A DNA stretch of 64,000 nucleotides from Brachyhypopomus gauderio (lineage: Eukaryota; Chordata; Actinopteri; Gymnotiformes; Hypopomidae). The notes under the pieces were generated by a model. The model saw only the letters and a program-made list of their open reading frames with translations. It did no database searches and had not been told where the DNA came from. The stretch covers positions 186,001-250,000 of the forward strand of contig NW_027506978.1 of NCBI RefSeq assembly GCF_052324685.1. Reading direction: 5' to 3'. The translations under genes and the position numbers were made by a program. Below are positions 1,607 to 36,407 of the stretch, piece by piece. Positions within the stretch are counted from its first letter, which is position 1. Each line of letters starts with the position of its first letter.

Positions 1607-1616
1607 TGCTAGCCAG

Positions 1617-1958: not shown

Positions 1959-1964
1959 GAGGGT

Positions 1965-15798: not shown

Positions 15799-15870
15799 CT
15801 CCCCGTCTGGGAATCGAACCCCGGTCTTCCGCGTGACAGGCGGAGATACTATCCACTATACTAACGAGGA
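15799..15870 (-). tRNA. tRNA-Asp-GTC: tRNA-Asp (GUC), alpha, U8
   Basis: Alpha form (G50-A64). Confidence 0.88.
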
Positions 15871-16633
15871 CACGTGCTGTGTCTTGCAGTGATGCTGAGT
15901 CAGGTGACGTGCACTTGTCCCCTTGATTTTAAAGTACTCTGAATCATTGTGCCTGCAAGGAGGTGGTAAAAAGAACACATTGTGGTGATATTGACTCACT
16001 GTTGCCATTCCTCTTTTACCATCGTCAGTTTGTGGACTTATGATAGGAAAAACTCAAAGAATCTTGGTGACCTACAGGTTTGATTCATCTGCCTTCCTAG
16101 TTAAGTCATGCAAACCATTTGCTGCAAAATTGGCTTTAGCTACATTGGCAATTCATTTTGTCTTTGTATTCCAGTGCATTGTACCGAACTGCAATATCCA
16201 TCTTAGATCAACTGAGATTTTGCATTTCTCTCTTTCCCACATGCAAGTTCTGAATTTCTTGGCACACATTACTGCTTTGCATCTACTAAAAGCACTCCAG
16301 AGAAAGCTTCACTTCATACCTTCATGAGGTAGCTGTCGTTTGTACTTGTATTTTGGTGGTATTTTTGTTTTTTTTTTTGTTTGTGTGCGTTGTTTGTCTA
16401 CTCTTGGAACATCCTGTGATTGGTTAGGGTAGGATTAGAGTTTAATTACGTTGGCCTCAGATTCTGGTTAATTCCAGGCTTCTTGTGCTAACCTTGTTGT
16501 TTGTTAGCTGTTGTTGGCAGTAATTAGTTGCTGCAGGTGCACTTGCCGCCATGCTCCAAGGAGTGAATTGGGGGCGGATACATTTTTTCTCCAGCTTTGT
16601 TAGTTCTTCCTCAGCCTCGCTTCTTCTTTCCTA

Positions 16634-16706
16634 GCCTCGTTAGCGCAGTAGGTAGCGCGTCAGTCTCATAATCTGAAGGTCGTGAGTTCGACCCTCACAC
16701 GGGGCA
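16634..16706 (+). tRNA. tRNA-Met-CAT: tRNA-Met (CAU), consensus, U9
   Basis: Consensus sequence. The T5 stop is at 16715-16719. Confidence 0.97.
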
Positions 16707-17289
16707 GCAGAAGCTTTTTGAAAAGATTGACGAGCCCCCAAAAGATGCTCAAACGCTCTTTCCTTATTCACTCGCATGCTGAGCACACCCCCTACCTGAA
16801 AATAGTATTGGCACATGACTCTTACAGGTCATCCCTAGTTGATTCAAGCTGTGCTTTTTCTTTTGTAAATTCGCGTGTGCACAGCAAGTTGTGTTGCATC
16901 CAATTCAATTCTCTCCACTGACCGTTCAGTCAATACCTTGATGGCGTCTGTATTGACACCTCTACTGAGACATCAAGCTGCCTCTTTGGAGCATGTTCGC
17001 TCCCAGATCAAACTGCAGTGTCGTGGTGCCAACACAGAATAATGGACCACGTCGGACACTTTTCACTTTTGATTCTTTTTGATTCACTTTTGATGACACG
17101 CTTTTGAATACCTGATCACCTGGAATTGGTACCAGCTTGAAGTTAATAGTGAGTAGACTTATGGAGATTCATTTATTTGAATTTTCTTCTCAAGCCATTT
17201 GCAACTCAGAAGCAATGACACTTGTGCACTCATCATTGAGCTTGAGGAAGTCCAAGGAATTGATCTCTATGTTACTCTCGCTCCGCCGA

Positions 17290-17371
17290 GCTGCGATGGC
17301 CGAGAGGTTAAGGCGTTGGACTTGAAATCCAATGGGGTTTCCCCGTGCAGGTTCGACTCCTGCTTGCAGCG
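17290..17371 (+). tRNA. tRNA-Ser-TGA: tRNA-Ser (UGA), beta with C48T, U9
   Basis: Beta form, except that the last variable-region base (17346) is T instead of C. This changes the expected G15-C48 Levitt pair to G15-U48. It is a CpG transition shared only with U10. Confidence 0.93.
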
Positions 17372-17775
17372 TGAGTGTCTTGTTGGGCGTGTGGAAAGAG
17401 AGAGTGTGCTCTCTTCCTGCTAGCCAGTTTTAAATATGCTTCTCATGCCATTTGCAACTTTGTGCTGCCAAACTTTAGCAGTCCTAACTGATCCTGAAAT
17501 AGTCCCAGGAATTGAGTTACAAATGGCTGCTTCGTCGTTACAATGTGTTGGCATGGAAATGCAGTGGGGTCTCTTGCAGCTTAGAGGATTAACTTGCCTC
17601 TCTAATGTGATTTGTGATGAGACCTTATGCCACCAGTGGGGAGAGCTTGCACTCACAGGTGCTTCATCCAAAGATCTTCATGCAACATAGTGATGTCTTG
17701 TTTCAGGTAAAAGAAAAAGTGCCACATTCTTTCATGGCCGGTCACTGGTTGCTCCGCCTTGCGCTAAAAGAGGGT

Positions 17776-17847
17776 CTCCCCGTCGGGGAATCGAACCCCG
17801 GTCTTCCGCGTGACAGGCGGAGATACTATCCACTATACTAACGAGGA
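17776..17847 (-). tRNA. tRNA-Asp-GTC: tRNA-Asp (GUC), beta, U9
   Basis: Canonical beta sequence. Confidence 0.97.
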
Positions 17848-18610
17848 CACGTGCTGTGTCTCGCAGTGATGCTGAGTCAGGTGACGTGCACTTGTCCCCT
17901 TGATTTTAAAGTACTCTGAATCATTGTGCCTGCAAGGAGGTGGTAAAAAGAACACATTGTGGTGATATTGACTCACTGTTGCCACTCCTCTTTTACCATC
18001 GTCAGTTTGTGGACTTATGATAGGAAAAACTCAAAGAATCTTGGTGACCTACAAGTTTGATTCATCTGCCTTCCTAGTTAAGTCATGCAAACCATTTGCT
18101 GCAAAATTGGCTTTAGCTACATTGGCAATTCATTTTGTCTTCGTATTCCAGTGCATTGTACCGAACTGCAATATCCATCTTAGATCAACTGAGATTTTGC
18201 ATTTCTCTCTTTCCCACATGCAAGTTCTGAATTTCTTGGCACACATTACTGCTTTGCATCTACTAAAAGCACTCCAGAGAAAGCTTCACTTCATACCTTC
18301 ATGAGGTAGGTGTCGTTTGTACTTGTATTTTGGTGGTATTTTTGTTTTTTTTTTTGTTTGTGTGCGTTGTTTGTCTACTCTTGGAACATCCTGTGATTGG
18401 TTAGGGTAGGATTAGAGTTTAATTACGTTGGCCTCAGATTCTGGTTATTTCCAGGCTTCTTGTGCTAACCTTGTTGTTTGTTAGCTGTTGTTGGCAGTAA
18501 TTAGTTGCTGCAGGTGCACTTGCCGCCATGCTCCAAGGAGTGAATTGGGGGCGGATACATTTTTTCTCCAGCTTTGTTAGTTCTTCCTCAGCCTCGCTTC
18601 TTCTTTCCTA

Positions 18611-18683
18611 GCCTCGTTAGCGCAGTAGGTAGCGCGTCAGTCTCATAATCTGAAGGTCGTGAGTTCGACCCTCACACGGGGCA
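18611..18683 (+). tRNA. tRNA-Met-CAT: tRNA-Met (CAU), consensus, U10
   Basis: Consensus gene with the GCAAAAGC trailer. The T5 stop is at 18692-18696. Confidence 0.97.
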
Positions 18684-19266
18684 GCAAAAGCTTTTTGAAA
18701 AGATTGACGAGCCCCCAAAAGATGCTCAAACGCTCTTTCCTTATTCACTCGCATGCTGAGCACACCCCCTACCTGAAAATAGTATTGGCACATGACTCTT
18801 ACAGGTCATCCCTAGTTGATTCAAGCTGTGCTTTTTCTTTTGTAAATTCGCGTGTACACAGCAAGTTGTGTTGCATCCAATTCAATTCTCTCCACTGACC
18901 GTTCAGTCAATACCTTGATGGCGTCTGTATTGACACCTCTACTGAGACATCAAGCTGCCTCTTTGGAGCATGTTCGCTCCCAGATCAAATTGCAGTGTCG
19001 TGGTGCCAACACAGAATAATGGACCACGTCGGACACTTTTCACTTTTGATTCTTTTTGATTCACTTTTGATGACACGCTTTTGAATACCTGATCACCTGG
19101 AATTGGTACCAGCTTGAAGTTAATAGTGAGTAGACTTATGGAGATTCATTTATTTGAATTTTCTTCTCAAGCCATTTGCAACTCAGAAGCAATGACACTT
19201 GTGCACTCATCATTGAGCTTGAGGAAGTCCAAGGAATTGATCTCTATGTTACTCTCGCTCCGCCGA

Positions 19267-19348
19267 GCTGCGATGGCCGAGAGGTTAAGGCGTTGGACTT
19301 GAAATCCAATGGGGTTTCCCCGTGCAGGTTCGACTCCTGCTTGCAGCG
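19267..19348 (+). tRNA. tRNA-Ser-TGA: tRNA-Ser (UGA), beta with C48T, U10
   Basis: Same C48T change as U9, at base 19323, consistent with duplication of the neighbouring unit. Confidence 0.93.
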
Positions 19349-19752
19349 TGAGTGTCTTGTTGGGCGTGTGGAAAGAGAGAGTGTGCTCTCTTCCTGCTAG
19401 CCAGTTTTAAATATGCTTCTCATGCCATTTGCAACTTTGTGCTGCCAAACTTTAGCAGTCCTAACTGATCCTGAAATAGTCCCAGGAATTGAGTTACAAA
19501 TGGCTGCTTCGTCGTTACAATGTGTTGGCATGGAAATGCAGTGGGGTCTCTTGCAGCTTAGAGGATTAACTTGCCTCTCTAATGTGATTTGTGATGAGAC
19601 CTTATGCCACCAGTGGGGAGAGCTTGCACTCACAGGTGCTTCATCCAAAGATCTTCATGCAACATAGTGATGTCTTGTTTCAGGTAAAAGAAAAAGTGCC
19701 ACATTCTTTCATGGCCGGTCACTGGTTGCTCCGCCTTGCGCTAAAAGAGGGT

Positions 19753-19824
19753 CTCCCCGTCGGGGAATCGAACCCCGGTCTTCCGCGTGACAGGCGGAGA
19801 TACTATCCACTATACTAACGAGGA
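19753..19824 (-). tRNA. tRNA-Asp-GTC: tRNA-Asp (GUC), beta, U10
   Basis: Canonical beta sequence. Confidence 0.97.
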
Positions 19825-20587
19825 CACGTGCTGTGTCTCGCAGTGATGCTGAGTCAGGTGACGTGCACTTGTCCCCTTGATTTTAAAGTACTCTGAATCA
19901 TTGTGCCTGCAAGGAGGTGGTAAAAAGAACACATTGTGGTGATATTGACTCACTGTTGCCACTCCTCTTTTACCATCGTCAGTTTGTGGACTTATGATAG
20001 GAAAAACTCAAAGAATCTTGGTGACCTACAAGTTTGATTCATCTGCCTTCCTAGTTAAGTCATGCAAACCATTTGCTGCAAAATTGGCTTTAGCTACATT
20101 GGCAATTCATTTTGTCTTCGTATTCCAGTGCATTGTACCGAACTGCAATATCCATCTTAGATCAACTGAGATTTTGCATTTCTCTCTTTCCCACATGCAA
20201 GTTCTGAATTTCTTGGCACACATTACTGCTTTGCATCTACTAAAAGCACTCCAGAGAAAGCTTCACTTCATACCTTCATGAGGTAGGTGTCGTTTGTACT
20301 TGTATTTTGGTGGTATTTTTGTTTTTTTTTTTGTTTGTGTGCGTTGTTTGTCTACTCTTGGAACATCCTGTGATTGGTTAGGGTAGGATTAGAGTTTAAT
20401 TACGTTGGCCTCAGATTCTGGTTAATTCCAGGCTTCTTGTGCTAACCTTGTTGTTTGTTAGCTGTTGTTGGCAGTAATTAGTTGCTGCAGGTGCACTTGC
20501 CGCCATGCTCCAAGGAGTGAATTGGGGGCGGATACATTTTTTCTCCAGCTTTGTTAGTTCTTCCTCAGCCTCGCTTCTTCTTTCCTA

Positions 20588-20660
20588 GCCTCGTTAGCGC
20601 AGTAGGTAGCGCGTCAGTCTCATAATCTGAAGGTCGTGAGTTCGACCCTCACACGGGGCA
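20588..20660 (+). tRNA. tRNA-Met-CAT: tRNA-Met (CAU), consensus, U11
   Basis: Consensus sequence. The T5 stop is at 20669-20673. Confidence 0.97.
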
Positions 20661-21244
20661 GCAGAAGCTTTTTGAAAAGATTGACGAGCCCCCAAAAGAT
20701 GCTCAAACGCTCTTTCCTTATTCACTCGCATGCTGAGCACACCCCCTACCCTGAAAATAGTATTGGCACATGACTCTTACAGGTCATCCCTAGTTGATTC
20801 AAGCTGTGCTTTTTCTTTTGTAAATTCGCGTGTGCACAGCAAGTTGTGTTGCATCCAATTCAATTCTCTCCACTGACCGTTCAGTCAATACCTTGATGGC
20901 GTCTGTATTGACACCTCTACTGAGACATCAAGCTGCCTCTTTGGAGCATGTTTGCTCCCAGATCAAACTGCAGTGTCGTGGAGCCAACACAGAATAATGG
21001 ACCACGTCGGACACTTTTCACTTTTGATTCTTTTTGATTCACTTTTGATGACACGCTTTTGAATACCTGATCACCTGGAATTGGTACCAGCTTGAAGTTA
21101 ATAGTGAGTAGACTTATGGAGATTCATTTATTTGAATTTTCTTCTCAAGCCATTTGCAACTCAGAAGCAATGACACTTGTGCACTCATCATTGAGCTTGA
21201 GGAAGTCCAAGGAATTGATCTCTATGTTACTCTCGCTCCGCCGA

Positions 21245-21326
21245 GCTGCGATGGCCGAGAGGTTAAGGCGTTGGACTTGAAATCCAATGGGGTTTCCCCG
21301 CGCAGGTTCGACTCCTGCTTGCAGCG
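21245..21326 (+). tRNA. tRNA-Ser-TGA: tRNA-Ser (UGA), beta, U11
   Basis: Canonical beta gene, followed by a short alpha-type tract in the spacer (see findings). Confidence 0.97.
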
Positions 21327-21730
21327 TGAGTGTCTTGTTGGGCGTGTGGAAAGAGAGAGTGTGCTCTCTTCCTGCTAGCCAGTTTTAAATATGCTTCTCA
21401 TGCCATTTGCAACTTTGTGCTGCCAAACTTTAGCAGTCCTAACTGATCCTGAAATAGTCCCAGGAATTGAGTTACAAATGGCTGCTTTGTCGTTACAATG
21501 TGTTGGCATGGAAATGCAGTGGGGTCTCTTGCAGCGTAGAGGATTAACTTGCCTCTCTAATGTGATTTGTGATGAGACCTTATGCCACCAGTGGGGAGAG
21601 CTTGCACTCACAGGTGCTTCATCCAAAGATCTTCATGCAACATAGCGATGTCTTGTTTCAGGTAAAAGAAAAAGTGCCACATTCTTTCATGGCCGGTCAC
21701 TGGTTGCTCCGCCTTGCGCTAAAAGAGGGT

Positions 21731-21802
21731 CTCCCCGTCGGGGAATCGAACCCCGGTCTTCCGCGTGACAGGCGGAGATACTATCCACTATACTAACGAG
21801 GA
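21731..21802 (-). tRNA. tRNA-Asp-GTC: tRNA-Asp (GUC), beta, U11
   Basis: Canonical beta sequence. Confidence 0.97.
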
Positions 21803-22565
21803 CACGTGCTGTGTCTCGCAGTGATGCTGAGTCAGGTGACGTGCACTTGTCCCCTTGATTTTAAAGTACTCTGAATCATTGTGCCTGCAAGGAGGTGGTA
21901 AAAAGAACACATTGTGGTGATATTGACTCACTGTTGCCACTCCTCTTTTACCATCGTCAGTTTGTGGACTTATGATAGGAAAAACTCAAAGAATCTTGGT
22001 GACCTACAAGTTTGATTCATCTGCCTTCCTAGTTAAGTCATGCAAACCATTTGCTGCAAAATTGGCTTTAGCTACATTGGCAATTCATTTTGTCTTCGTA
22101 TTCCAGTGCATTGTACCGAACTGCAATATCCATCTTAGATCAACTGAGATTTTGCATTTCTCTCTTTCCCACATGCAAGTTCTGAATTTCTTGGCACACA
22201 TTACTGCTTTGCATCTACTAAAAGCACTCCAGAGAAAGCTTCACTTCATACCTTCATGAGGTAGGTGTCGTTTGTACTTGTATTTTGGTGGTATTTTTGT
22301 TTTTTTTTTTGTTTGTGTGCGTTGTTTGTCTACTCTTGGAACATCCTGTGATTGGTTAGGGTAGGATTAGAGTTTAATTACGTTGGCCTCAGATTCTGGT
22401 TAATTCCAGGCTTCTTGTGCTAACCTTGTTGTTTGTTAGCTGTTGTTGGCAGTAATTAGTTGCTGCAGGTGCACTTGCCGCCATGCTCCAAGGAGTGAAT
22501 TGGGGGCGGATACATTTTTTCTCCAGCTTTGTTAGTTCTTCCTCAGCCTCGCTTCTTCTTTCCTA

Positions 22566-22638
22566 TCCTCGTTAGCGCAGTAGGTAGCGCGTCAGTCTCA
22601 TAATCTGAAGGTCGTGAGTTCGACCCTCACACGGGGCA
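22566..22638 (+). tRNA. tRNA-Met-CAT: tRNA-Met (CAU) with G1T, U12
   Basis: The first base of the mature tRNA (22566) is T, leaving U1 opposite C72. The terminal acceptor pair is lost, which should disturb RNase P cleavage and aminoacylation. The promoter boxes are intact. This change occurs in this unit only. Confidence 0.85.
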
Positions 22639-23221
22639 GCAAAAGCTTTTTGAAAAGATTGACGAGCCCCCAAAAGATGCTCAAACGCTCTTTCCTTATT
22701 CACTCGCATGCTGAGCACACCCCCTACCTGAAAATAGTATTGGCACATGACTCTTACAGGTCATCCCTAGTTGATTCAAGCTGTGCTTTTTCTTTTGTAA
22801 ATTCGCGTGTGCACAGCAAGTTGTGTTGCATCCAATTCAATTCTCTCCACTGACCGTTCAGTCAATACCTTGATGGCGTCTGTATTGACACCTCTACTGA
22901 GACATCAAGCTGCCTCTTTGGAGCATGTTTGCTCCCAGATCAAACTGCAGTGTCGTGGAGCCAACACAGAATAATGGACCACGTCGGACACTTTTCACTT
23001 TTGATTCTTTTTGATTCACTTTTGATGACACGCTTTTGAATACCTGATCACCTGGAATTGGTACCAGCTTGAAGTTAATAGTGAGTAGACTTATGGAGAT
23101 TCATTTATTTGAATTTTCTTCTCAAGCCATTTGCAACTCAGAAGCAATGACACTTGTGCACTCATCATTGAGCTTGAGGAAGTCCAAGGAATTGATCTCT
23201 ATGTTACTCTCGCTCCGCCGA

Positions 23222-23303
23222 GCTGCGATGGCCGAGAGGTTAAGGCGTTGGACTTGAAATCCAATGGGGTTTCCCCGCGCAGGTTCGACTCCTGCTTGCA
23301 GCG
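23222..23303 (+). tRNA. tRNA-Ser-TGA: tRNA-Ser (UGA), beta, U12
   Basis: Canonical beta sequence. Confidence 0.97.
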
Positions 23304-23707
23304 TGAGTGTCTTGTTGGGCGTGTGGAAAGAGAGAGTGTGCTCTCTTCCTGCTAGCCAGTTTTAAATATGCTTCTCATGCCATTTGCAACTTTGTGCTGC
23401 CAAACTTTAGCAGTCCTAACTGATCCTGAAATAGTCCCAGGAATTGAGTTACAAATGGCTGCTTCGTCGTTACAATGTGTTGGCATGGAAATGCAGTGGG
23501 GTCTCTTGCAGCTTAGAGGATTAACTTGCCTCTCTAATGTGATTTGTGATGAGACCTTATGCCACCAGTGGGGAGAGCTTGCACTCACAGGTGCTTCATC
23601 CAAAGATTTTCATGCAACATAGCGATGTCTTGTTTCAGGTAAAAGAAAAAGTGCCACATTCTTTCATGGCCGGTCACTGGTTGCTCCGCCTTGCGCTAAA
23701 AGAGGGT

Positions 23708-23779
23708 CTCCTCGTCAGGGAATCGAACCCCGGTCTTCCACGTAACAGGCGGAGATACTATCCACTATACTAACGAGGA
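23708..23779 (-). tRNA. Asp-type tRNA with GUU (Asn) anticodon, U12
   Basis: Same three changes as U7 (anticodon GUU at plus-strand 23744-23746) plus C64T, which makes G50-U64 a wobble pair in the T stem. All stems remain paired. Confidence 0.87.
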
Positions 23780-24543
23780 CACGTGCTGTGTCTCGCAGTG
23801 ATGCTGAGTCAGGTGACGTGCACTTGTCCCCTTGATTTTAAAGTACTCTGAATCATTGTGCCTGCAAGGAGGTGGTAAAAAGAACACATTGTGGTGATAT
23901 TGACTCACTGTTGCCATTCCTCTTTTACCATCGTCAGTTTGTGGACTTATGATAGGAAAAACTCAAAGAATTTTGGTGACCTACAGGTTTGATTCATCTG
24001 CCTTCCTAGTTAAGTCATGCAAACCATTTGCTGCAAAATTGGCTTTAGCTACATTGGCAATTCATTTTGTCTTTGTATTCCAGTGCATTGTACCGAACTG
24101 CAATATCCATCTTAGATCAACTGAGATTTTGCATTTCTCTCTTTCCCACATGCAAGTTCTGAATTTCTTGGCACACATTACTGCTTTGCATCTACTAAAA
24201 GCACTCCAGAGAAAGCTTCACTTCATACCTTCATGAGGTAGGTGTCGTTTGTACTTGTATTTTGGTGGTATTTTTGTTTTTTTTTTTTGTTTGTGTGCGT
24301 TGTTTGTCTACTCTTGGAACATCCTGTGATTGGTTAGGGTAGGATTAGAGTTTAATTACGTTGGCCTCAGATTCTGGTTAATTCCAGGCTTCTTGTGCTA
24401 ACCTTGTTGTTTGTTAGCTGTTGTTGGCAGTAATTAGTTGCTGCAGGTGCACTTGCCGCCATGCTCCAAGGAGTGAATTGGGGGCGGATACATTTTTTCT
24501 CCAGCTTTGTTAGTTCTTCCTCAGCCTCGCTTCTTCTTTCCTA

Positions 24544-24616
24544 GCCTCGTTAGCGCAGTAGGTAGCGCGTCAGTCTCATAATCTGAAGGTCGTGAGTTCG
24601 ACCCTCACACGGGGCA
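24544..24616 (+). tRNA. tRNA-Met-CAT: tRNA-Met (CAU), consensus, U13
   Basis: Consensus sequence. The T5 stop is at 24625-24629. Confidence 0.97.
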
Positions 24617-25200
24617 GCAGAAGCTTTTTGAAAAGATTGACGAGCCCCCAAAAGATGCTCAAACGCTCTTTCCTTATTCACTCGCATGCTGAGCACACCC
24701 CCTACCCTGAAAATAGTATTGGCACATGACTCTTACAGGTCATCCCTAGTTGATTCAAGCTGTGCTTTTTCTTTTGTAAATTCGCGTGTGCACAGCAAGT
24801 TGTGTTGCATCCAATTCAATTCTCTCCACTGACCGTTCAGTCAATACCTTGATGGCGTCTGTATTGACACCTCTACTGAGACATCAAGCTGCCTCTTTGG
24901 AGCATGTTTGCTCCCAGATCAAACTGCAGTGTCGTGGAGCCAACACAGAATAATGGACCACGTCGGACACTTTTCACTTTTGATTCTTTTTGATTCACTT
25001 TTGATGACACGCTTTTGAATACCTGATCACCTGGAATTGGTACCAGCTTGAAGTTAATAGTGAGTAGACTTATGGAGATTCATTTATTTGAATTTTCTTC
25101 TCAAGCCATTTGCAACTCAGAAGCAATGACACTTGTGCACTCATCATTGAGCTTGAGGAAGTCCAAGGAATTGATCTCTATGTTACTCTCGCTCCGCCGA

Positions 25201-25282
25201 GCTGCGATGGCCGAGAGGTTAAGGCGTTGGACTTGAAATCCAATGGGGTTTCCCCGCGCAGGTTCGACTCCTGCTTGCAGCG
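25201..25282 (+). tRNA. tRNA-Ser-TGA: tRNA-Ser (UGA), beta, U13
   Basis: Canonical beta sequence. Confidence 0.97.
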
Positions 25283-25686
25283 TGAGTGTCTTGTTGGGCG
25301 TGTGGAAAGAGAGAGTGTGCTCTCTTCCTGCTAGCCAGTTTTAAATATGCTTCTCATGCCATTTGCAACTTTGTGCTGCCAAACTTTAGCAGTCCTAACT
25401 GATCCTGAAATAGTCCCAGGAATTGAGTTACAAATGGCTGCTTCGTCGTTACAATGTGTTGGCATGGAAATGCAGTGGGGTCTCTTGCAGCTTAGAGGAT
25501 TAACTTGCCTCTCTAATGTGATTTGTGATGAGACCTTATGCCACCAGTGGGGAGAGCTTGCACTCACAGGTGCTTCATCCAAAGATTTTCATGCAACATA
25601 GCGATGTCTTGTTTCAGGTAAAAGAAAAAGTGCCACATTCTTTCATGGCCGGTCACTGGTTGCTCCGCCTTGCGCTAAAAGAGGGT

Positions 25687-25758
25687 CTCCTCGTCAGGGA
25701 ATCGAACCCCGGTCTTCCACGTAACAGGCGGAGATACTATCCACTATACTAACGAGGA
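25687..25758 (-). tRNA. Asp-type tRNA with GUU (Asn) anticodon, U13
   Basis: Matches the U12 copy, with the anticodon at plus-strand 25723-25725 and the G50-U64 pair. Confidence 0.87.
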
Positions 25759-26521
25759 CACGTGCTGTGTCTCGCAGTGATGCTGAGTCAGGTGACGTGC
25801 ACTTGTCCCCTTGATTTTAAAGTACTCTGAATCATTGTGCCTGCAAGGAGGTGGTAAAAAGAACACATTGTGGTGATATTGACTCACTGTTGCCACTCCT
25901 CTTTTACCATCGTCAGTTTGTGGACTTATGATTGGAAAAACTCAAAGAATCTTGGTGACCTACAGGTTTGATTCATCTGCCTTCCTAGTTAAGTCATGCA
26001 AACCATTTGCTGCAAAATTGGCTTTAGCTACATTGGCAATTCATTTTGTCTTCGTATTCCAGTGCATTGTAGCGAACTGCAATATCCATCTTAGATCAAC
26101 TGAGATTTTGCATTTCTCTCTTTCCCACATGCAAGTTCTGAATTTCTTGGCACACATTACTGCTTTGCATCTACTAAAAGCACTCCAGAGAAAGCTTCAC
26201 TTCATACCTTCATGAGGTAGGTGTCGTTTGTACTTGTATTTTGGTGGTATTTTTGTTTTTTTTTTTGTTTGTGTGCGTTGTTTGTCTACTCTTGGAACAT
26301 CCTGTGATTGGTTAGGGTAGGATTAGAGTTTAATTACGTTGGCCTCAGATTCTGGTTAATTCCAGGCTTCTTGTGCTAACCTTGTTGTTTGTTAGCTGTT
26401 GTTGGCAGTAATTAGTTGCTGCAGGTGCACTTGCCGCCATGCTCCAAGGAGTGAATTGGGGGCGGATACATTTTTTCTCCAGCTTTGTTAGTTCTTCCTC
26501 AGCCTCGCTTCTTCTTTCCTA

Positions 26522-26594
26522 GCCTCGTTAGCGCAGTAGGTAGCGTGTCAGTCTCATAATCTGAAGGTCGTGAGTTCGACCCTCACACGGGGCA
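26522..26594 (+). tRNA. tRNA-Met-CAT: tRNA-Met (CAU) with C25T and no close terminator, U14
   Basis: Base 26546 is T, giving G10-U25 in the D stem, which is tolerable. The T5 stop is changed to TATTT at 26603-26607, so the transcript should run on to the T5 run about 140 bp further downstream. Production of mature tRNA may be reduced. Confidence 0.88.
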
Positions 26595-27177
26595 GCAGAA
26601 GCTATTTGAAAAGATTGACGAGCCCCCAAAAGATGCTCAAACGCTCTTTCCTTATTCACTCGCATGCTGAGCACACCCCCTACCTGAAAATAGTATTGGC
26701 ACATGACTCTTACAGGTCATCCCTAGTTGATTCAAGCTGTGCTTTTTCTTTTGTAAATTCGCGTGTGCACAGCAAGTTGTGTTGCATCCAATTCAATTCT
26801 CTCCACTGACCGTTCAGTCAATACCTTGATGGCGTCTGTATTGACACCTCTACTGAGACATCAAGCTGCCTCTTTGGAGCATGTTTGCTCCCAGATCAAA
26901 CTGCAGTGTCGTGGAGCCAACACAGAATAATGGACCACGTCGGACACTTTTCACTTTTGATTCTTTTTGATTCACTTTTGATGACACGCTTTTGAATACC
27001 TGATCACCTGGAATTGGTACCAGCTTGAAGTTAATAGTGAGTAGACTTATGGAGATTCATTTATTTGAATTTTCTTCTCAAGCCATTTGCAACTCAGAAG
27101 CAATGACACTTGTGCACTCATCATTGAGCTTGAGGAAGTCCAAGGAATTGATCTCTATGTTACTCTCGCTCCGCCGA

Positions 27178-27259
27178 GCTGCGATGGCCGAGAGGTTAAG
27201 GCGTTGGACTTGAAATCCAATGGGGTTTCCCCGCGCAGGTTCGACTCCTGCTTGCAGCG
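27178..27259 (+). tRNA. tRNA-Ser-TGA: tRNA-Ser (UGA), beta, U14
   Basis: Canonical beta sequence. Confidence 0.97.
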
Positions 27260-27663
27260 TGAGTGTCTTGTTGGGCGTGTGGAAAGAGAGAGTGTGCTCT
27301 CTTCCTGCTAGCCAGTTTTAAATATGCTTCTCATGCCATTTGCAACTTTGTGCTGCCAAACTTTAGCAGTCCTAACTGATCCTGAAATAGTCCCAGGAAT
27401 TGAGTTACAAATGGCTGCTTCGTCGTTACAATGTGTTGGCATGGAAATGCAGTGGGGTCTCTTGCAGCTTAGAGGATTAACTTGCCTCTCTAATGTGATT
27501 TGTGATGAGACCTTATGCCACCAGTGGGGAGAGCTTGCACTCACAGGTGCTTCATCCAAAGATTTTCATGCAACATAGCGATGTCTTGTTTCAGGTAAAA
27601 GAAAAAGTGCCACATTCTTTCATGGCCGGTCACTGGTTGCTCCGCCTTGCGCTAAAAGAGGGT

Positions 27664-27735
27664 CTCCTCGTCAGGGAATCGAACCCCGGTCTTCCACGTA
27701 ACAGGCGGAGATACTATCCACTATACTAACGAGGA
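27664..27735 (-). tRNA. Asp-type tRNA with GUU (Asn) anticodon, U14
   Basis: Matches the U12 and U13 copies, with the anticodon at plus-strand 27700-27702. Confidence 0.87.
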
Positions 27736-28498
27736 CACGTGCTGTGTCTCGCAGTGATGCTGAGTCAGGTGACGTGCACTTGTCCCCTTGATTTTAAAGT
27801 ACTCTGAATCATTGTGCCTGCAAGGAGGTGGTAAAAAGAACACATTGTGGTGATATTGACTCACTGTTGCCACTCCTCTTTTACCATCGTCAGTTTGTGG
27901 ACTTATGATTGGAAAAACTCAAAGAATCTTGGTGACCTACAGGTTTGATTCATCTGCCTTCCTAGTTAAGTCATGCAAACCATTTGCTGCAAAATTGGCT
28001 TTAGCTACATTGGCAATTCATTTTGTCTTCGTATTCCAGTGCATTGTAGCGAACTGCAATATCCATCTTAGATCAACTGAGATTTTGCATTTCTCTCTTT
28101 CCCACATGCAAGTTCTGAATTTCTTGGCACACATTACTGCTTTGCATCTACTAAAAGCACTCCAGAGAAAGCTTCACTTCATACCTTCATGAGGTAGGTG
28201 TCGTTTGTACTTGTATTTTGGTGGTATTTTTGTTTTTTTTTTTGTTTGTGTGCGTTGTTTGTCTACTCTTGGAACATCCTGTGATTGGTTAGGGTAGGAT
28301 TAGAGTTTAATTACGTTGGCCTCAGATTCTGGTTAATTCCAGGCTTCTTGTGCTAACCTTGTTGTTTGTTAGCTGTTGTTGGCAGTAATTAGTTGCTGCA
28401 GGTGCACTTGCCGCCATGCTCCAAGGAGTGAATTGGGGGCGGATACATTTTTTCTCCAGCTTTGTTAGTTCTTCCTCAGCCTCGCTTCTTCTTTCCTA

Positions 28499-28571
28499 GC
28501 CTCGTTAGCGCAGTAGGTAGCGTGTCAGTCTCATAATCTGAAGGTCGTGAGTTCGACCCTCACACGGGGCA
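28499..28571 (+). tRNA. tRNA-Met-CAT: tRNA-Met (CAU) with C25T and no close terminator, U15
   Basis: Same C25T (28523) and TATTT (28580-28584) as U14, so one duplication carried both changes. Confidence 0.88.
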
Positions 28572-29154
28572 GCAGAAGCTATTTGAAAAGATTGACGAGC
28601 CCCCAAAAGATGCTCAAACGCTCTTTCCTTATTCACTCGCATGCTGAGCACACCCCCTACCTGAAAATAGTATTGGCACATGACTCTTACAGGTCATCCC
28701 TAGTTGATTCAAGCTGTGCTTTTTCTTTTGTAAATTCGCGTGTGCACAGCAAGTTGTGTTGCATCCAATTCAATTCTCTCCACTGACCGTTCAGTCAATA
28801 CCTTGATGGCGTCTGTATTGACACCTCTACTGAGACATCAAGCTGCCTCTTTGGAGCATGTTTGCTCCCAGATCAAACTGCAGTGTCGTGGAGCCAACAC
28901 AGAATAATGGACCACGTCGGACACTTTTCACTTTTGATTCTTTTTGATTCACTTTTGATGACACGCTTTTGAATACCTGATCACCTGGAATTGGTACCAG
29001 CTTGAAGTTAATAGTGAGTAGACTTATGGAGATTTATTTATTTGAATTTTCTACTCAAGCCATTTGCAACTCAGAAGCAATGACACTTGTGCACTCATCA
29101 TTGAGCTTGAGGAAGTCCAAGGAATTGATCTCTATGTTACTCTCGCTCCTCCGA

Positions 29155-29236
29155 ACTGCGATGGCCTAGAGGTTAAGGCGTTGGACTTGAAATCCAATGG
29201 GGTTTCCCCGCGCAGGTTCGACTCCTGCTTGCAGCG
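29155..29236 (+). tRNA. tRNA-Ser-TGA: tRNA-Ser (UGA), alpha, U15
   Basis: Alpha form (A1-C72, T13). Confidence 0.88.
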
Positions 29237-29640
29237 TGAGTGTCTTGTTGGGAGTGTGGAAAGAGAGAGTGTGCTCTCTTCCTGCTAGCCAGTTTTAAAT
29301 ATGCTTCTCATGCCATTTGCAACTTTGTGCTGCCAAACTTTAGCAGTCCTAACTGATCCTGAAATAGTCCCAGGAATTGAGTTACAAATGGCTGCTTTGT
29401 CGTTACAATGTGTTGGCATGGAAATGCAGTGGGGTCTCTTGCAGCGTAGAGGATTAACTTGCCTCTCTAATGTGATTTGTGATGAGACCTTATGCCACCA
29501 GTGGGGAGAGCTTGCACTCACAGGTGCTTCATCCAAAGATCTTCATGCAACATAGCGATGTCTTGTTTCAGGTAAAAGAAAAAGTGCCACATTCTTTCAT
29601 GGCTGGTCACTGGTTGCTCCGCCTTGCGCTAAAAGAGGGT

Positions 29641-29712
29641 CTCCCCGTCTGGGAATCGAACCCCGGTCTTCCGCGTGACAGGCGGAGATACTATCCACTA
29701 TACTAACGAGGA
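29641..29712 (-). tRNA. tRNA-Asp-GTC: tRNA-Asp (GUC), alpha, U15
   Basis: Alpha form (G50-A64). Confidence 0.88.
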
Positions 29713-30475
29713 CACGTGCTGTGTCTTGCAGTGATGCTGAGTCAGGTGACGTGCACTTGTCCCCTTGATTTTAAAGTACTCTGAATCATTGTGCCTGCAA
29801 GGAGGTGGTAAAAAGAACACATTGTGGTGATATTGACTCACTGTTGCCATTCCTCTTTTACCATCGTCAGTTTGTGGACTTATGATAGGAAAAACTCAAA
29901 GAATCTTGGTGACCTACAGGTTTGATTCATCTGCCTTCCTAGTTAAGTCATGCAAACCATTTGCTGCAAAATTGGCTTTAGCTACATTGGCAATTCATTT
30001 TGTCTTTGTATTCCAGTGCATTGTACCGAACTGCAATATCCATCTTAGATCAACTGAGATTTTGCATTTCTCTCTTTCCCACATGCAAGTTCTGAATTTC
30101 TTGGCACACATTACTGCTTTGCATCTACTAAAAGCACTCCAGAGAAAGCTTCACTTCATACCTTCATGAGGTAGGTGTCGTTTGTACTTGTATTTTGGTG
30201 GTATTTTTGTTTTTTTTTTTGTTTGTGTGCGTTGTTTGTCTACTCTTGGAACATCCTGTGATTGGTTAGGGTAGGATTAGAGTTTAATTACGTTGGCCTC
30301 AGATTCTGGTTAATTCCAGGCTTCTTGTGCTAACCTTGTTGTTTGTTAGCTGTTGTTGGCAGTAATTAGTTGCTGCAGGTGCACTTGCCGCCATGCTCCA
30401 AGGAGTGAATTGGGGGCGGATACATTTTTTCTCCAGCTTTGTTAGTTCTTCCTCAGCCTCGCTTCTTCTTTCCTA

Positions 30476-30548
30476 GCCTCGTTAGCGCAGTAGGTAGCGC
30501 GTCAGTCTCATAATCTGAAGGTCGTGAGTTCGACCCTCACACGGGGTA
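30476..30548 (+). tRNA. tRNA-Met-CAT: tRNA-Met (CAU) with C72T, U16
   Basis: Base 30547 is T, so the terminal acceptor pair is G1-U72 instead of G1-C72. Seen also in U17, U19, U20 and U32. It may weaken the acceptor end, but pairing is kept. Confidence 0.9.
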
Positions 30549-31131
30549 GCAGAAGCTTTTTGAAAAGATTGACGAGCCCCCAAAAGATGCTCAAACGCTC
30601 TTTCCTTATTCACTCGCATGCTGAGCACACCCCCTACCTGAAAATAGTATTGGCACATGACTCTTACAGGTCATCCCTAGTTGATTCAAGCTGTGCTTTT
30701 TCTTTTGTAAATTCGCGTGTACACAGCAAGTTGTGTTGCATCCAATTCAATTCTCTCCACTGACCGTTCAGTCAATACCTTGATGGCATCTGTATTGACA
30801 CCTCTACTGAGACATCAAGCTGCCTCTTTGGAGCATGTTCGCTCCCAGATCAAACTGCAGTGTCGTGGTGCCAACACAGAATAATGGACCACGTCGGACA
30901 CTTTTCACTTTTGATTCTTTTTGATTCACTTTTGATGACACGCTTTTGAATACCTGATCACCTGGAATTGGTACCAGCTTGAAGTTAATAGTGAGTAGAC
31001 TTATGGAGATTCATTTATTTGAATTTTCTACTCAAGCCATTTGCAACTCAGAAGCAATGACACTTGTGCACTCATCATTGAGCTTGAGGAAGTCCAAGGA
31101 ATTGATCTCTATGTTACTCTCGCTCCTCCGA

Positions 31132-31213
31132 ACTGCGATGGCCTAGAGGTTAAGGCGTTGGACTTGAAATCCAATGGGGTTTCCCCGCGCAGGTTCGACT
31201 CCTGCTTGCAGCG
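31132..31213 (+). tRNA. tRNA-Ser-TGA: tRNA-Ser (UGA), alpha, U16
   Basis: Alpha form (A1-C72, T13). Confidence 0.88.
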
Positions 31214-31617
31214 TGAGTGTCTTGTTGGGAGTGTGGAAAGAGAGAGTGTGCTCTCTTCCTGCTAGCCAGTTTTAAATATGCTTCTCATGCCATTTGCAAC
31301 TTTGTGCTGCCAAACTTTAGCAGTCCTAACTGATCCTGAAATAGTCCCAGGAATTGAGTTACAAATGGCTGCTTTGTCGTTACAATGTGTTGGCATGGAA
31401 ATGCAGTGGGGTCTCTTGCAGCGTAGAGGATTAACTTGCCTCTCTAATGTGATTTGTGATGAGACCTTATGCCACCAGTGGGGAGAGCTTGCACTCACAG
31501 GTGCTTCATCCAAAGATCTTCATGCAACATAGCGATGTCTTGTTTCAGGTAAAAGAAAAAGTGCCACATTCTTTCATGGCTGGTCACTGGTTGCTCCGCC
31601 TTGCGCTAAAAGAGGGT

Positions 31618-31689
31618 CTCCCCGTCTGGGAATCGAACCCCGGTCTTCCGCGTGACAGGCGGAGATACTATCCACTATACTAACGAGGA
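31618..31689 (-). tRNA. tRNA-Asp-GTC: tRNA-Asp (GUC), alpha, U16
   Basis: Alpha form (G50-A64). Confidence 0.88.
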
Positions 31690-32452
31690 CACGTGCTGTG
31701 TCTTGCAGTGATGCTGAGTCAGGTGACGTGCACTTGTCCCCTTGATTTTAAAGTACTCTGAATCATTGTGCCTGCAAGGAGGTGGTAAAAAGAACACATT
31801 GTGGTGATATTGACTCACTGTTGCCATTCCTCTTTTACCATCGTCAGTTTGTGGACTTATGATAGGAAAAACTCAAAGAATCTTGGTGACCTACAGGTTT
31901 GATTCATCTGCCTTCCTAGTTAAGTCATGCAAACCATTTGCTGCAAAATTGGCTTTAGCTACATTGGCAATTCATTTTGTCTTTGTATTCCAGTGCATTG
32001 TACCGAACTGCAATATCCATCTTAGATCAACTGAGATTTTGCATTTCTCTCTTTCCCACATGCAAGTTCTGAATTTCTTGGCACACATTACTGCTTTGCA
32101 TCTACTAAAAGCACTCCAGAGAAAGCTTCACTTCATACCTTCATGAGGTAGGTGTCGTTTGTACTTGTATTTTGGTGGTATTTTTGTTTTTTTTTTTGTT
32201 TGTGTGCGTTGTTTGTCTACTCTTGGAACATCCTGTGATTGGTTAGGGTAGGATTAGAGTTTAATTACGTTGGCCTCAGATTCTGGTTAATTCCAGGCTT
32301 CTTGTGCTAACCTTGTTGTTTGTTAGCTGTTGTTGGCAGTAATTAGTTGCTGCAGGTGCACTTGCCGCCATGCTCCAAGGAGTGAATTGGGGGCGGATAC
32401 ATTTTTTCTCCAGCTTTGTTAGTTCTTCCTCAGCCTCGCTTCTTCTTTCCTA

Positions 32453-32525
32453 GCCTCGTTAGCGCAGTAGGTAGCGCGTCAGTCTCATAATCTGAAGGTC
32501 GTGAGTTCGACCCTCACACGGGGTA
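32453..32525 (+). tRNA. tRNA-Met-CAT: tRNA-Met (CAU) with C72T, U17
   Basis: G1-U72 form; the changed base is 32524. Confidence 0.9.
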
Positions 32526-33108
32526 GCAGAAGCTTTTTGAAAAGATTGACGAGCCCCCAAAAGATGCTCAAACGCTCTTTCCTTATTCACTCGCATGCTG
32601 AGCACACCCCCTACCTGAAAATAGTATTGGCACATGACTCTTACAGGTCATCCCTAGTTGATTCAAGCTGTGCTTTTTCTTTTGTAAATTCGCGTGTACA
32701 CAGCAAGTTGTGTTGCATCCAATTCAATTCTCTCCACTGACCGTTCAGTCAATACCTTGATGGCATCTGTATTGACACCTCTACTGAGACATCAAGCTGC
32801 CTCTTTGGAGCATGTTCGCTCCCAGATCAAACTGCAGTGTCGTGGTGCCAACACAGAATAATGGACCACGTCGGACACTTTTCACTTTTGATTCTTTTTG
32901 ATTCACTTTTGATGACACGCTTTTGAATACCTGATCACCTGGAATTGGTACCAGCTTGAAGTTAATAGTGAGTAGACTTATGGAGATTCATTTATTTGAA
33001 TTTTCTACTCAAGCCATTTGCAACTCAGAAGCAATGACACTTGTGCACTCATCATTGAGCTTGAGGAAGTCCAAGGAATTGATCTCTATGTTACTCTCGC
33101 TCCTCCGA

Positions 33109-33190
33109 ACTGCGATGGCCTAGAGGTTAAGGCTTTGAACTTGAAATCCAATGGGGTTTCCCCGCGCAGGTTCGACTCCTGCTTGCAGCG
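33109..33190 (+). tRNA. tRNA-Ser-TGA: tRNA-Ser (UGA), alpha with G26T and G30A, U17
   Basis: On top of the alpha changes, base 33134 (position 26) is T and 33138 (position 30) is A. The latter leaves A30 opposite C40 in the anticodon stem. With A1-C72 as well, two stems are now imperfect, so this is a probable pseudogene. Confidence 0.75.
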
Positions 33191-33594
33191 TGAGTGTCTT
33201 GTTGGGCGTGTGGAAAGAGAGAGTGTGCTCTCTTCCTGCTAGCCAGTTTTAAATATGCTTCTCATGCCATTTGCAACTTTGTGCTGCCAAACTTTAGCAG
33301 TCCTAACTGATCCTGAAATAGTCCCAGGAATTGAGTTACAAATGGCTGCTTTGTCGTTACAATGTGTTGGCATGGAAATGCAGTGGGGTCTCTTGCAGCG
33401 TAGAGGATTAACTTGCCTCTCTAATGTGATTTGTGATGAGACCTTATGCCACCAGTGGGGAGAGCTTGCACTCACAGGTGCTTCATCCAAAGATCTTCAT
33501 GCAACATAGCGATGTCTTGTTTCAGGTAAAAGAAAAAGTGCCACATTCTTTCATGGCTGGTCACTGGTTGCTCCGCCTTGCGCTAAAAGAGGGT

Positions 33595-33666
33595 CTCCCC
33601 GTCGGGGAATCGAACCCCGGTCTTCCGCGTGACAGGCGGAGATACTATCCACTATACTAACGAGGA
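33595..33666 (-). tRNA. tRNA-Asp-GTC: tRNA-Asp (GUC), beta, U17
   Basis: A canonical Asp gene in a unit with an alpha Ser gene, so the unit is recombinant. Confidence 0.97.
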
Positions 33667-34429
33667 CACGTGCTGTGTCTTGCAGTGATGCTGAGTCAGG
33701 TGACGTGCACTTGTCCCCTTGATTTTAAAGTACTCTGAATCATTGTGCCTGCAAGGAGGTGGTAAAAAGAACACATTGTGGTGATATTGACTCACTGTTG
33801 CCACTCCTCTTTTACCATCGTCAGTTTGTGGACTTATGATTGGAAAAACTCAAAGAATCTTGGTGACCTACAGGTTTGATTCATCTGCCTTCCTAGTTAA
33901 GTCATGCAAACCATTTGCTGCAAAATTGGCTTTAGCTACATTGGCAATTCATTTTGTCTTCGTATTCCAGTGCATTGTAGCGAACTGCAATATCCATCTT
34001 AGATCAACTGAGATTTTGCATTTCTCTCTTTCCCACATGCAAGTTCTGAATTTCTTGGCACACATTACTGCTTTGCATCTACTAAAAGCACTCCAGAGAA
34101 AGCTTCACTTCATACCTTCATGAGGTAGGTGTCGTTTGTACTTGTATTTTGGTGGTATTTTTGTTTTTTTTTTTGTTTGTGTGCGTTGTTTGTCTACTCT
34201 TGGAACATCCTGTGATTGGTTAGGGTAGGATTAGAGTTTAATTACGTTGGCCTCAGATTCTGGTTAATTCCAGGCTTCTTGTGCTAACCTTGTTGTTTGT
34301 TAGCTGTTGTTGGCAGTAATTAGTTGCTGCAGGTGCACTTGCCGCCATGCTCCAAGGAGTGAATTGGGGGCGGATACATTTTTTCTCCAGCTTTGTTAGT
34401 TCTTCCTCAGCCTCGCTTCTTCTTTCCTA

Positions 34430-34502
34430 GCCTCGTTAGCGCAGTAGGTAGCGCGTCAGTCTCATAATCTGAAGGTCGTGAGTTCGACCCTCACACGGGG
34501 CA
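34430..34502 (+). tRNA. tRNA-Met-CAT: tRNA-Met (CAU), consensus, U18
   Basis: Consensus sequence. The T5 stop is at 34511-34515. Confidence 0.97.
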
Positions 34503-35085
34503 GCAGAAGCTTTTTGAAAAGATTGACGAGCCCCCAAAAGATGCTCAAACGCTCTTTCCTTATTCACTCGCATGCTGAGCACACCCCCTACCTGAAAATA
34601 GTATTGGCACATGACTCTTACAGGTCATCCCTAGTTGATTCAAGCTGTGCTTTTTCTTTTGTAAATTCGCGTGTGCACAGCAAGTTGTGTTGCATCCAAT
34701 TCAATTCTCTCCACTGACCGTTCAGTCAATACCTTGATGGCGTCTGTATTGACACCTCTACTGAGACATCAAGCTGCCTCTTTGGAGCATGTTTGCTCCC
34801 AGATCAAACTGCAGTGTCGTGGAGCCAACACAGAATAATGGACCACGTCGGACACTTTTCACTTTTGATTCTTTTTGATTCACTTTTGATGACACGCTTT
34901 TGAATACCTGATCACCTGGAATTGGTACCAGCTTGAAGTTAATAGTGAGTAGACTTATGGAGATTCATTTATTTGAATTTTCTACTCAAGCCATTTGCAA
35001 CTCAGAAGCAATGACACTTGTGCACTCATCATTGAGCTTGAGGAAGTCCAAGGAATTGATCTCTATGTTACTCTCGCTCCTCCGA

Positions 35086-35167
35086 ACTGCGATGGCCTAG
35101 AGGTTAAGGCGTTGGACTTGAAATCCAATGGGGTTTCCCCGCGCAGGTTCGACTCCTGCTTGCAGCG
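35086..35167 (+). tRNA. tRNA-Ser-TGA: tRNA-Ser (UGA), alpha, U18
   Basis: Alpha form (A1-C72, T13). Confidence 0.88.
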
Positions 35168-35571
35168 TGAGTGTCTTGTTGGGAGTGTGGAAAGAGAGAG
35201 TGTGCTCTCTTCCTGCTAGCCAGTTTTAAATATGCTTCTCATGCCATTTGCAACTTTGTGCTGCCAAACTTTAGCAGTCCTAACTGATCCTGAAATAGTC
35301 CCAGGAATTGAGTTACAAATGGCTGCTTTGTCGTTACAATGTGTTGGCATGGAAATGCAGTGGGGTCTCTTGCAGCGTAGAGGATTAACTTGCCTCTCTA
35401 ATGTGATTTGTGATGAGACCTTATGCCACCAGTGGGGAGAGCTTGCACTCACAGGTGCTTCATCCAAAGATCTTCATGCAACATAGCGATGTCTTGTTTC
35501 AGGTAAAAGAAAAAGTGCCACATTCTTTCATGGCTGGTCACTGGTTGCTCCGCCTTGCGCTAAAAGAGGGT

Positions 35572-35643
35572 CTCCCCGTCTGGGAATCGAACCCCGGTCT
35601 TCCGCGTGACAGGCGGAGATACTATCCACTATACTAACGAGGA
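35572..35643 (-). tRNA. tRNA-Asp-GTC: tRNA-Asp (GUC), alpha, U18
   Basis: Alpha form (G50-A64). Confidence 0.88.
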
Positions 35644-36407
35644 CACGTGCTGTGTCTTGCAGTGATGCTGAGTCAGGTGACGTGCACTTGTCCGCTTGAT
35701 TTTAAAGTACTCTGAATCATTGTGCCTGCAAGGAGGTGGTAAAAAGAACACATTGTGGTGATATTGACTCACTGTTGCCATTCCTCTTTTACCATCGTCA
35801 GTTTGTGGACTTATGATAGGAAAAACTCAAAGAATCTTGGTGACCTACAGGTTTGATTCATCTGCCTTCCTAGTTAAGTCATGCAAACCATTTGCTGCAA
35901 AATTGGCTTTAGCTACATTGGCAATTCATTTTGTCTTCGTATTCCAGTGCATTGTACCGAACTGCAATATCCATCTTAGATCAACTGAGATTTTGCATTT
36001 CTCTCTTTCCCACATGCAAGTTCTGAATTTCTTGGCACACATTACTGCTTTGCATCTACTAAAAGCACTCCAGAGAAAGCTTCACTTCATACCTTCATGA
36101 GGTAGGTGTCGTTTGTACTTGTATTTTGGTGGTATTTTTGTTTTTTTTTTTTGTTTGTGTGCGTTGTTTGTCTACTCTTGGAACATCCTGTGATTGGTTA
36201 GGGTAGGATTAAAGTTTAATTACGTTGGCCTCAGATTCTGGTTAATTCCAGGCTTCTTGTGCTAACCTTGTTGTTTGTTAGCTGTTGTTGGCAGTAATTA
36301 GTTGCTGCAGGTGCACTTGCCGCCATGCTCCAAGGAGTGAATTGGGGGCGGATACATTTTTTCTCCAGCTTTGTTAGTTCTTCCTCAGCCTCGCTTCTTC
36401 TTTCCTA

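What the first reader, a model, noticed from the sequence alone, without database searches (positions are those of the whole stretch)
23708..27735. Three consecutive Asp-type tRNA genes with an Asn (GUU) anticodon (U12-U14)
Plus-strand GTAACAG replaces GTGACAG in the anticodon loop, turning GUC into GUU in three adjacent units. The accompanying changes keep the fold: G30-U40, U4-A69 (better than the original U-G) and G50-U64. Promoter boxes, terminator, G73 and C38 are retained. This is an alloacceptor switch inside a multicopy array. It could yield an Asn-reading tRNA on an Asp body, a mischarged tRNA, or transcribed decoys. Anticodon-shifted tRNAs are known in other animals, but I know of no case amplified in a tandem cluster with Met and Ser.
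Basis: partly seen in the sequence, partly recalled or inferred. Interest (0 to 1): 0.82.

Follow-up and report, generated by a model that had tools for sequence, protein, structure and literature searches.

The report
Asp tRNA genes with Asn anticodon
In a long tandem array of animal-type tRNA genes, five of the 32 aspartate tRNA genes carry the asparagine anticodon; they all descend from one mutated copy that recombination spread through the array, and they probably make a redundant asparagine tRNA or nothing of note, which only RNA and charging data can settle.

Summary
The window is a tandem array of 32 units of about 1,977 bp, each with tRNA-Met(CAT), tRNA-Ser(TGA) and, on the minus strand, an Asp-type tRNA gene. 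Five of the 32 Asp-type genes, not three, carry GTT: U7, U12-U14 and U30. All five share C36T, C40T and G69A plus one private spacer SNP, so they are one haplotype, spread by recombination. U12-U14 add C64T. The bodies match published metazoan Asp stem motifs at 20 of 21 positions and Asn motifs at 11 of 21, so the anticodon/isotype conflict is genuine. By published identity rules the genes have each listed Asn determinant and lose only C36 of the Asp set, so an expressed copy would most likely be Asn-charged. Misaspartylation is the functional rival, if C38 hinders the protective t6A37. Variable sites are 2.6 times as frequent in the tRNA genes as in the spacers, and other damaged alleles are common, so drift in a redundant array explains the shift without selection. 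Expression and charging are untested. It is a multicopy variant of known nuclear alloacceptor anticodon shifts.

The parts
23708..23779 (-). U12 Asp-body tRNA gene with Asn GUU anticodon (C36T, C40T, G69A, C64T)
   Evidence: (54.8 bits)
25687..25758 (-). U13 Asp-body tRNA gene with GUU anticodon, identical to U12
   Evidence: (54.8 bits)
27664..27735 (-). U14 Asp-body tRNA gene with GUU anticodon, identical to U12
   Evidence: (54.8 bits)
13822..13893 (-). U7 Asp-body tRNA gene with GUU anticodon, C64 retained; not in the finding I was given
   Evidence: (56.4 bits)
59301..59372 (-). U30 Asp-body tRNA gene with GUU anticodon, C64 retained; not in the finding I was given
   Evidence: (56.4 bits)
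23608..23608 (.). Spacer SNP (T instead of C) 100 bp from the tRNA gene, private to the five Asn-anticodon units (U12 position given; alignment column 1646)
   Evidence: window position worked out from the distance and read
822..63326 (.). 32 tandem units (about 1,977 bp) of Met(CAT) +, Ser(TGA) +, Asp-type -; a cut tRNA at 1-58, minus strand, shows that the array continues past the left edge

Best explanation
One Asp(GUC) gene in a redundant tandem tRNA array acquired C36T (with C40T and G69A), turning its anticodon into GUU. Unequal exchange or gene conversion between units then copied that haplotype into 5 of the 32 units seen, and a C64T subline sits in U12-U14. The shared haplotype and its mosaic flanks are shown by the sequence; which exchange mechanism is inferred. 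The rest is inference too. The changes look like ordinary G/C-to-A/T mutation tolerated because of redundancy. If the genes are transcribed, the product keeps G34, U35, A37 and G73 and gains U36, so it most likely is charged by AsnRS and reads AAC/AAU as a redundant tRNA-Asn on an Asp body. U36-A37 would allow t6A37, which in yeast blocks aspartylation.
For: Shared haplotype: C36T, C40T, G69A and one spacer SNP are fixed in and private to the same five units. Recombination: 9 of the other 42 informative biallelic sites fail the four-gamete test with the anticodon site, and the lower bound for the array is 8 events. Intact cloverleaf: no mismatched stem pair in the two Asn alleles; cmscan 56.4 and 54.8 bits against 57.5 for canonical Asp (13 of 32) and 51.0 for the commonest Asp allele, A64 (14 of 32). 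Flanks and TTTT shared with Asp siblings. Identity rules: Asn in bacteria G73, G34, U35, U36, A37; Asp in eukaryotes G73, G10-U25, G34, U35, C36; t6A37 prevents aspartylation of yeast tRNA-Asn (PMC9976931 passages and section 29). Drift: 14 of 227 tRNA sites vary against 41 of 1,745 spacer sites, Fisher p = 0.0038; 15 of 15 minor or derived tRNA alleles are G/C against A/T, and G/C to A/T as I polarised them.
Against: No transcription, maturation or charging data. Eukaryotic Asn determinants are blank in the review's table, so the rule is carried over from bacteria and, in part, yeast. C38 is an Asp determinant and is not A38, which human mitochondrial t6A formation needs. G69A removes the U4-G69 pair of Asp and Asn tRNAs. 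The minimum-energy fold of the unmodified Asn-T64 transcript lies 3.2 kcal/mol below its cloverleaf. Nuclear alloacceptor shifts are thought mostly to be young pseudogenes (PMC4981973 passages). Three tRNA changes against one spacer change private to this haplotype (p = 0.00018) could also reflect conversion from a diverged copy elsewhere instead of local mutation.
Confidence: 0.55

Rival explanations
1. The five genes are transcriptionally silent or their products are degraded: they are young pseudogene-like alleles drifting in the array, with no effect on translation.
For: Other damaged alleles are common in the same array: Ser with an A1-C72 mismatch in 16 of 32, Asp with G50-A64 in 14 of 32, Met with C56T in 2 of 32, Ser with A30-C40 in 2 of 32. 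Published view that most recent alloacceptor remoldings are already pseudogenes (PMC4981973 passages).
Against: Terminator, flanks and stem pairing of the five genes are intact. The excess of variants inside the tRNA genes and in the first 20 bp beside them (5 of 120 sites; few sites) is what transcription-associated mutation could leave, which hints at transcription; this is inference.
Confidence: 0.33
2. The product stays an AspRS substrate and inserts aspartate at asparagine codons at a low level.
For: Only C36 of the listed Asp determinants is lost; G73, G34, U35, C38 and G10-U25 stay. Yeast AspRS risks mischarging tRNA-Asn(GUU), and t6A37 prevents aspartylation there. C38 may hinder t6A37: A38 is required by the human mitochondrial enzyme. 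Authors of PMC7919458 infer mischarging for fly alloacceptor shifts (passage).
Against: C36 is a strong Asp determinant. In Xenopus oocytes only U36 and A37 were absolutely required for t6A, as cited in PMC7102964, so t6A37 should form. Several mischarging copies should carry a cost (inference).
Confidence: 0.15
3. The GUU anticodon came in by gene conversion from another, diverged Asp-type gene elsewhere in the genome and did not arise in the array. This concerns the origin and can hold together with any of the functional readings.
For: Three tRNA substitutions appear together in 5 of 5 carriers and no intermediate exists among 32 units, while the rest of the unit has one private SNP.
Against: The haplotype also includes a private SNP 100 bp outside the gene, and the gene flanks match array siblings. 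Intermediates may have been lost or lie outside the window.
Confidence: 0.2
4. Selection raised the copy number of the GUU allele because extra Asn decoding or a tRNA fragment is useful.
For: Present in 5 of 32 units with intact stems.
Against: Alleles with broken pairs reach 14 and 16 of 32 in the same array, so frequency alone is no sign of benefit; the clustering of three is marginal (p = 0.056).
Confidence: 0.05

Closest known systems
Nuclear alloacceptor anticodon shifts (Rogers and Griffiths-Jones 2014, PMC3923123; Velandia-Huerto 2016, PMC4981973; abstract text and passages seen)
   Same: Anticodon base change moving a nuclear tRNA gene to another amino acid's codon, thought to be favoured by gene redundancy.
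   Different: Those are described gene by gene by synteny; here one shift is shared by five copies in a tandem array. In the passages I saw, the identity pairs occurring more than once were Asn/Lys and Met/Thr; I did not see the full list, so an Asp/Asn case there is not excluded.
Human 1q23.3 tRNA tandem repeat (PMC4041453; passages seen)
   Same: Array of units (9-43 per allele) with several tRNA genes on both strands, including tRNA-Asp; 98% identity between units.
   Different: 7.3-kb GC-rich unit with Leu, Gly, Glu, Gly, Asp; the word anticodon does not occur in its main text. Here the unit is 1.98 kb with Met, Ser, Asp and 44-45% GC.
Mitochondrial alloacceptor tRNA remolding (PMC4783518; search listing and start of abstract only)
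   Same: Duplication, then anticodon change on another body.
   Different: Mitochondrial, with loss of the ancestral gene; here 27 unshifted siblings remain.
Asn-to-Lys anticodon shift in Drosophila ananassae (PMC7884595; passages seen)
   Same: Switch between two identities served by closely related synthetases; [quoted passage not shown] melanogaster.
   Different: Different identity pair, and the passages speak of a single shifted gene.

Membership tests
Nuclear alloacceptor anticodon-shift tRNA | Anticodon belongs to a different amino acid from the tRNA body | tested here: met
   GUU anticodon; stem motifs match Asp at 20 of 21 and Asn at 11 of 21 positions of PMC9023262 Table 1; 4-nt variable loop
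Nuclear alloacceptor anticodon-shift tRNA | Direction can be polarised against an ancestral paralogue or orthologue | tested here: met
   27 of the 32 Asp-type genes keep GTC in the same context; no outgroup species was available
Nuclear alloacceptor anticodon-shift tRNA | tRNA fold and Pol III signals retained | tested here: met
   Rfam tRNA 54.8-56.4 bits against cutoff 29; no broken stem pair, TTTT and flanks as in siblings; changes lie outside the A and B boxes (box limits recalled)
Functional tRNA-Asn | Listed Asn determinants G73, G34, U35, U36, A37 | tested here: met
   All present; determinants are from bacteria, with yeast support
Functional tRNA-Asn | Metazoan Asn stem motifs | tested here: not met
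   11 of 21 positions, so the body is not that of the tRNA-Asn family
Functional tRNA-Asn | Transcribed, matured and charged with Asn | not testable with these tools
   No RNA or charging data
tRNA-Asp | G73, G34, U35, C36, C38, G10-U25 | tested here: not met
   C36 lost; the other five retained (list)

The most novel reading that the evidence does not exclude
The five genes make a dual-identity tRNA: Asp body with C38 and G10-U25 but U36. Its charging with Asn or Asp is set by whether t6A37 is installed next to C38, so that modification state would tune Asp-for-Asn substitution across the proteome. The copy number of this allele would then be a heritable, recombination-driven dial.
Probability: 0.07. 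Interest if true: 0.8.

Novelty: new variant of a known kind. Interest (0 to 1): 0.42.

Why it matters
Nuclear alloacceptor shifts are hard to tell from pseudogenes. Here one shift exists in five copies beside 27 unshifted siblings with near-identical flanks, so promoter context is controlled naturally. Asp and Asn differ by C36 or U36 in the listed anticodon determinants, so this body tests whether one base suffices in an animal and whether C38 and t6A37 decide charging. The array also suggests that per-copy constraint is relaxed enough for tRNA alleles with broken pairs to reach 14 and 16 of 32 copies.

Tried and rejected
Assembly or base-call error: judged unlikely because distinguishable units share three linked substitutions and a spacer SNP; raw reads could not be checked.

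Whole-unit triplication of U12-U14: rejected. The three units show no difference between columns 764 and 1955, a stretch that spans the Ser and Asp genes, but differ on the Met side at columns such as 13, 45, 133, 152, 627, 679 and 685, so exchange of segments and not plain triplication is needed.

Selection on adjacency: not supported (p = 0.056).

Protein-coding content of the spacer: the three longest of the six ORFs of 60 aa or more listed for one unit had no Pfam match. All 97 Rfam matches at the gathering threshold in the window were tRNA.

Organism and relatives: not found. No genome is held. Megablast of one unit against plasmids gave nothing. Exact scans of viral contigs and genome contigs gave nothing; a control scan of viral contigs with the normal Asp anticodon also gave nothing, and genome contigs had no control, so these zeros say nothing about rarity. 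'Animal' rests on the match to stem motifs of human, mouse and silkworm tRNAs.

Thermodynamic folding without modifications: of the four alleles tested, three (Asp A64, Asn C64, Asn T64) have a minimum-energy fold that is not the cloverleaf, and the fourth (Asp C64) one that is only near it. The cloverleaf lies 0.5-0.6 kcal/mol above the minimum for three alleles and 3.2 above it for Asn T64. That counts a little against U12-U14.

Papers opened but not used in the argument: PMC6468285 (queuosine and C38 methylation, passages), PMC11878792 (human LysRS, passages), PMC2888827 (tRNA gene clusters, passages).

Full report
What is there. The window is a tandem array. ARAGORN finds 96 tRNA genes: 32 Met(CAT) and 32 Ser(TGA) on the plus strand and 32 Asp-type on the minus strand, of which 27 have GTC and 5 have GTT. 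The 31 units bounded by successive Met genes are 1,975-1,978 bp; with the last unit, whose end I set, they align over 1,982 columns with 65 variable columns, 55 of them without gaps. Rfam scoring gives the same 96 genes plus a 97th, cut off at window position 1, so the array runs on to the left.

The observation. The three genes named are correct in position, strand and substitutions. Two further units, U7 and U30, carry the same anticodon shift. All five share C36T, C40T and G69A; U12, U13 and U14 also have C64T. Position 64 splits the 32 Asp-type genes into Asp-C64 13, Asp-A64 14, Asn-C64 2 and Asn-T64 3.

Body identity. Against the metazoan stem motifs of PMC9023262 Table 1 (section 7 read), the five genes match Asp at 20 of 21 positions and Asn at 11 of 21. 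Of the seven isotypes I scored, Asp is best and Gly next with 15. They keep the four-base variable loop, G73, G10-U25, C38 and A37. The conflict between anticodon and body is therefore real, although tRNAscan-SE isotype models were not available.

Genealogy. The three tRNA substitutions and one spacer SNP 100 bp away are fixed in, and private to, exactly these five units. Three private sites in 72 bp of Asp gene against one in the other 1,910 columns is an uneven spread (Fisher p = 0.00018; the sites are linked, so read this as descriptive). The carriers have different Met-side halves, and 9 of the other 42 informative biallelic sites fail the four-gamete test with the anticodon site; the lower bound for the whole array is 8 recombination events. 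So one haplotype has been moved between units by exchange or conversion. U12-U14 are not a plain triplication.

Mutation and constraint. tRNA sites vary more than spacer sites: 14 of 227 against 41 of 1,745 (rate ratio 2.6, odds ratio 2.7, p = 0.0038). The first 20 bp beside the genes are also high (5 of 120), while sites 51-100 bp away are low (3 of 299) and those beyond 100 bp are intermediate (16 of 561 and 16 of 585), so the fall with distance is not even. All 15 minor or derived tRNA alleles are G/C against A/T; in spacers 29 of 41 are. I set polarity by majority, and for the two evenly split Ser sites and Asp position 64 by the published motifs; on that reading all 15 are G/C to A/T, 8 of them C to T on the sense strand (my count). 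Constraint per copy looks loose: Ser has A1-C72 in 16 of 32, Asp has G50-A64 in 14 of 32, Met has C56T in 2 of 32 and Ser has A30-C40 in 2 of 32. PMC8113476 (passage) states that tRNA gene bodies normally vary very little although transcription-associated mutagenesis raises the rate beside them; the work it cites was not held. My reading is that redundancy in the array lets that mutation show inside the genes. This is inference.

Structure. No stem pair is broken in the Asn alleles. Their cmscan scores, 56.4 and 54.8 bits, lie between canonical Asp (57.5) and the commonest Asp allele (51.0). Against this, the energy-minimum fold of the unmodified Asn-T64 transcript is 3.2 kcal/mol below its cloverleaf, and G69A replaces U4-G69, a pair that occurs in Asp and Asn tRNAs and that PMC9023262 says could be part of the identity elements (passage). 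G30-U40 also occurs in yeast tRNA-Asp, where it is a hinge point when free and AspRS-bound forms are compared (section 8).

How it most likely works. PMC9976931 (passages and section 29) lists G73, G10-U25, G34, U35 and C36 for eukaryotic Asp, counts C38 among five strong Asp determinants, and gives G73, G34, U35, U36 and A37 for bacterial Asn; the eukaryotic Asn row is blank. It says that C36 in Asp is replaced by U36 in Asn, that t6A37 prevents aspartylation of yeast tRNA-Asn, and that yeast AspRS risks mischarging tRNA-Asn(GUU). The variant loses one Asp determinant and has every listed Asn determinant. [quoted passage not shown] In Xenopus oocytes only U36 and A37 were absolutely required, but human mitochondrial t6A formation also needs A38 (PMC7102964 passages). 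The variant has U36-A37-C38. So Asn charging is the better bet and Asp mischarging the live rival, with t6A37 next to C38 as the switch. Expression is unknown. The odds given to rivals are not all exclusive: the imported-conversion rival concerns origin only.

Comparison. Nuclear alloacceptor shifts are a known kind: 31 of 75 shifts in PMC3923123, 30 of the 31 in eukaryotes (abstract text and passages). Most recent ones are thought to be pseudogenes (PMC4981973 passages), though authors of PMC7919458 infer mischarging (passage). Tandem tRNA repeats are also known, for example human 1q23.3 (PMC4041453 passages). The combination, one shift in several copies of a tandem array, did not appear in the titles and abstract beginnings listed, which cover open-licence papers only and whose hits I did not all open.

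Verdict. Real, incomplete as described, best read as a neutral or nearly neutral allele spread in a redundant array, with a plausible but unproven tRNA-Asn product. Interest is moderate: the charging test is clean and the array is a natural controlled comparison.

Noticed in passing
Ser genes of 16 of 32 units, e.g. 1479-1560 and 29155-29236: Half of the tRNA-Ser(TGA) genes have A1 and T13 in place of G1 and G13, giving an A1-C72 mismatch at the acceptor end (57.9 bits against 62.9); U17 and U20 add G26T and an A30-C40 mismatch (48.8 bits)..
   Followed up: partly
Asp genes of 14 of 32 units, e.g. 1965-2036 and 29641-29712: The commonest Asp allele has C64A, a G50-A64 mismatch in the T stem, with the lowest score among the Asp-type genes (51.0 bits)..
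   Followed up: partly
4775-4847 (U3) and 52226-52298 (U27): tRNA-Met with C56T, which changes the T loop (TTTGACC in U3) and, by the recalled box definition, the B box..
   Followed up: no
whole array, 822-63326: tRNA genes are more variable between units than spacers (14 of 227 against 41 of 1,745 sites), the reverse of the pattern described for tRNA gene bodies in PMC8113476, and all 15 minor or derived tRNA alleles are G/C against A/T..
   Followed up: yes
U14 and U15, columns 13-685 of the unit alignment: Neighbouring units share their Met-side haplotype (Met C25T and a flanking SNP seen in no other unit) but differ at Ser and Asp, a visible mosaic boundary from local exchange..
   Followed up: partly
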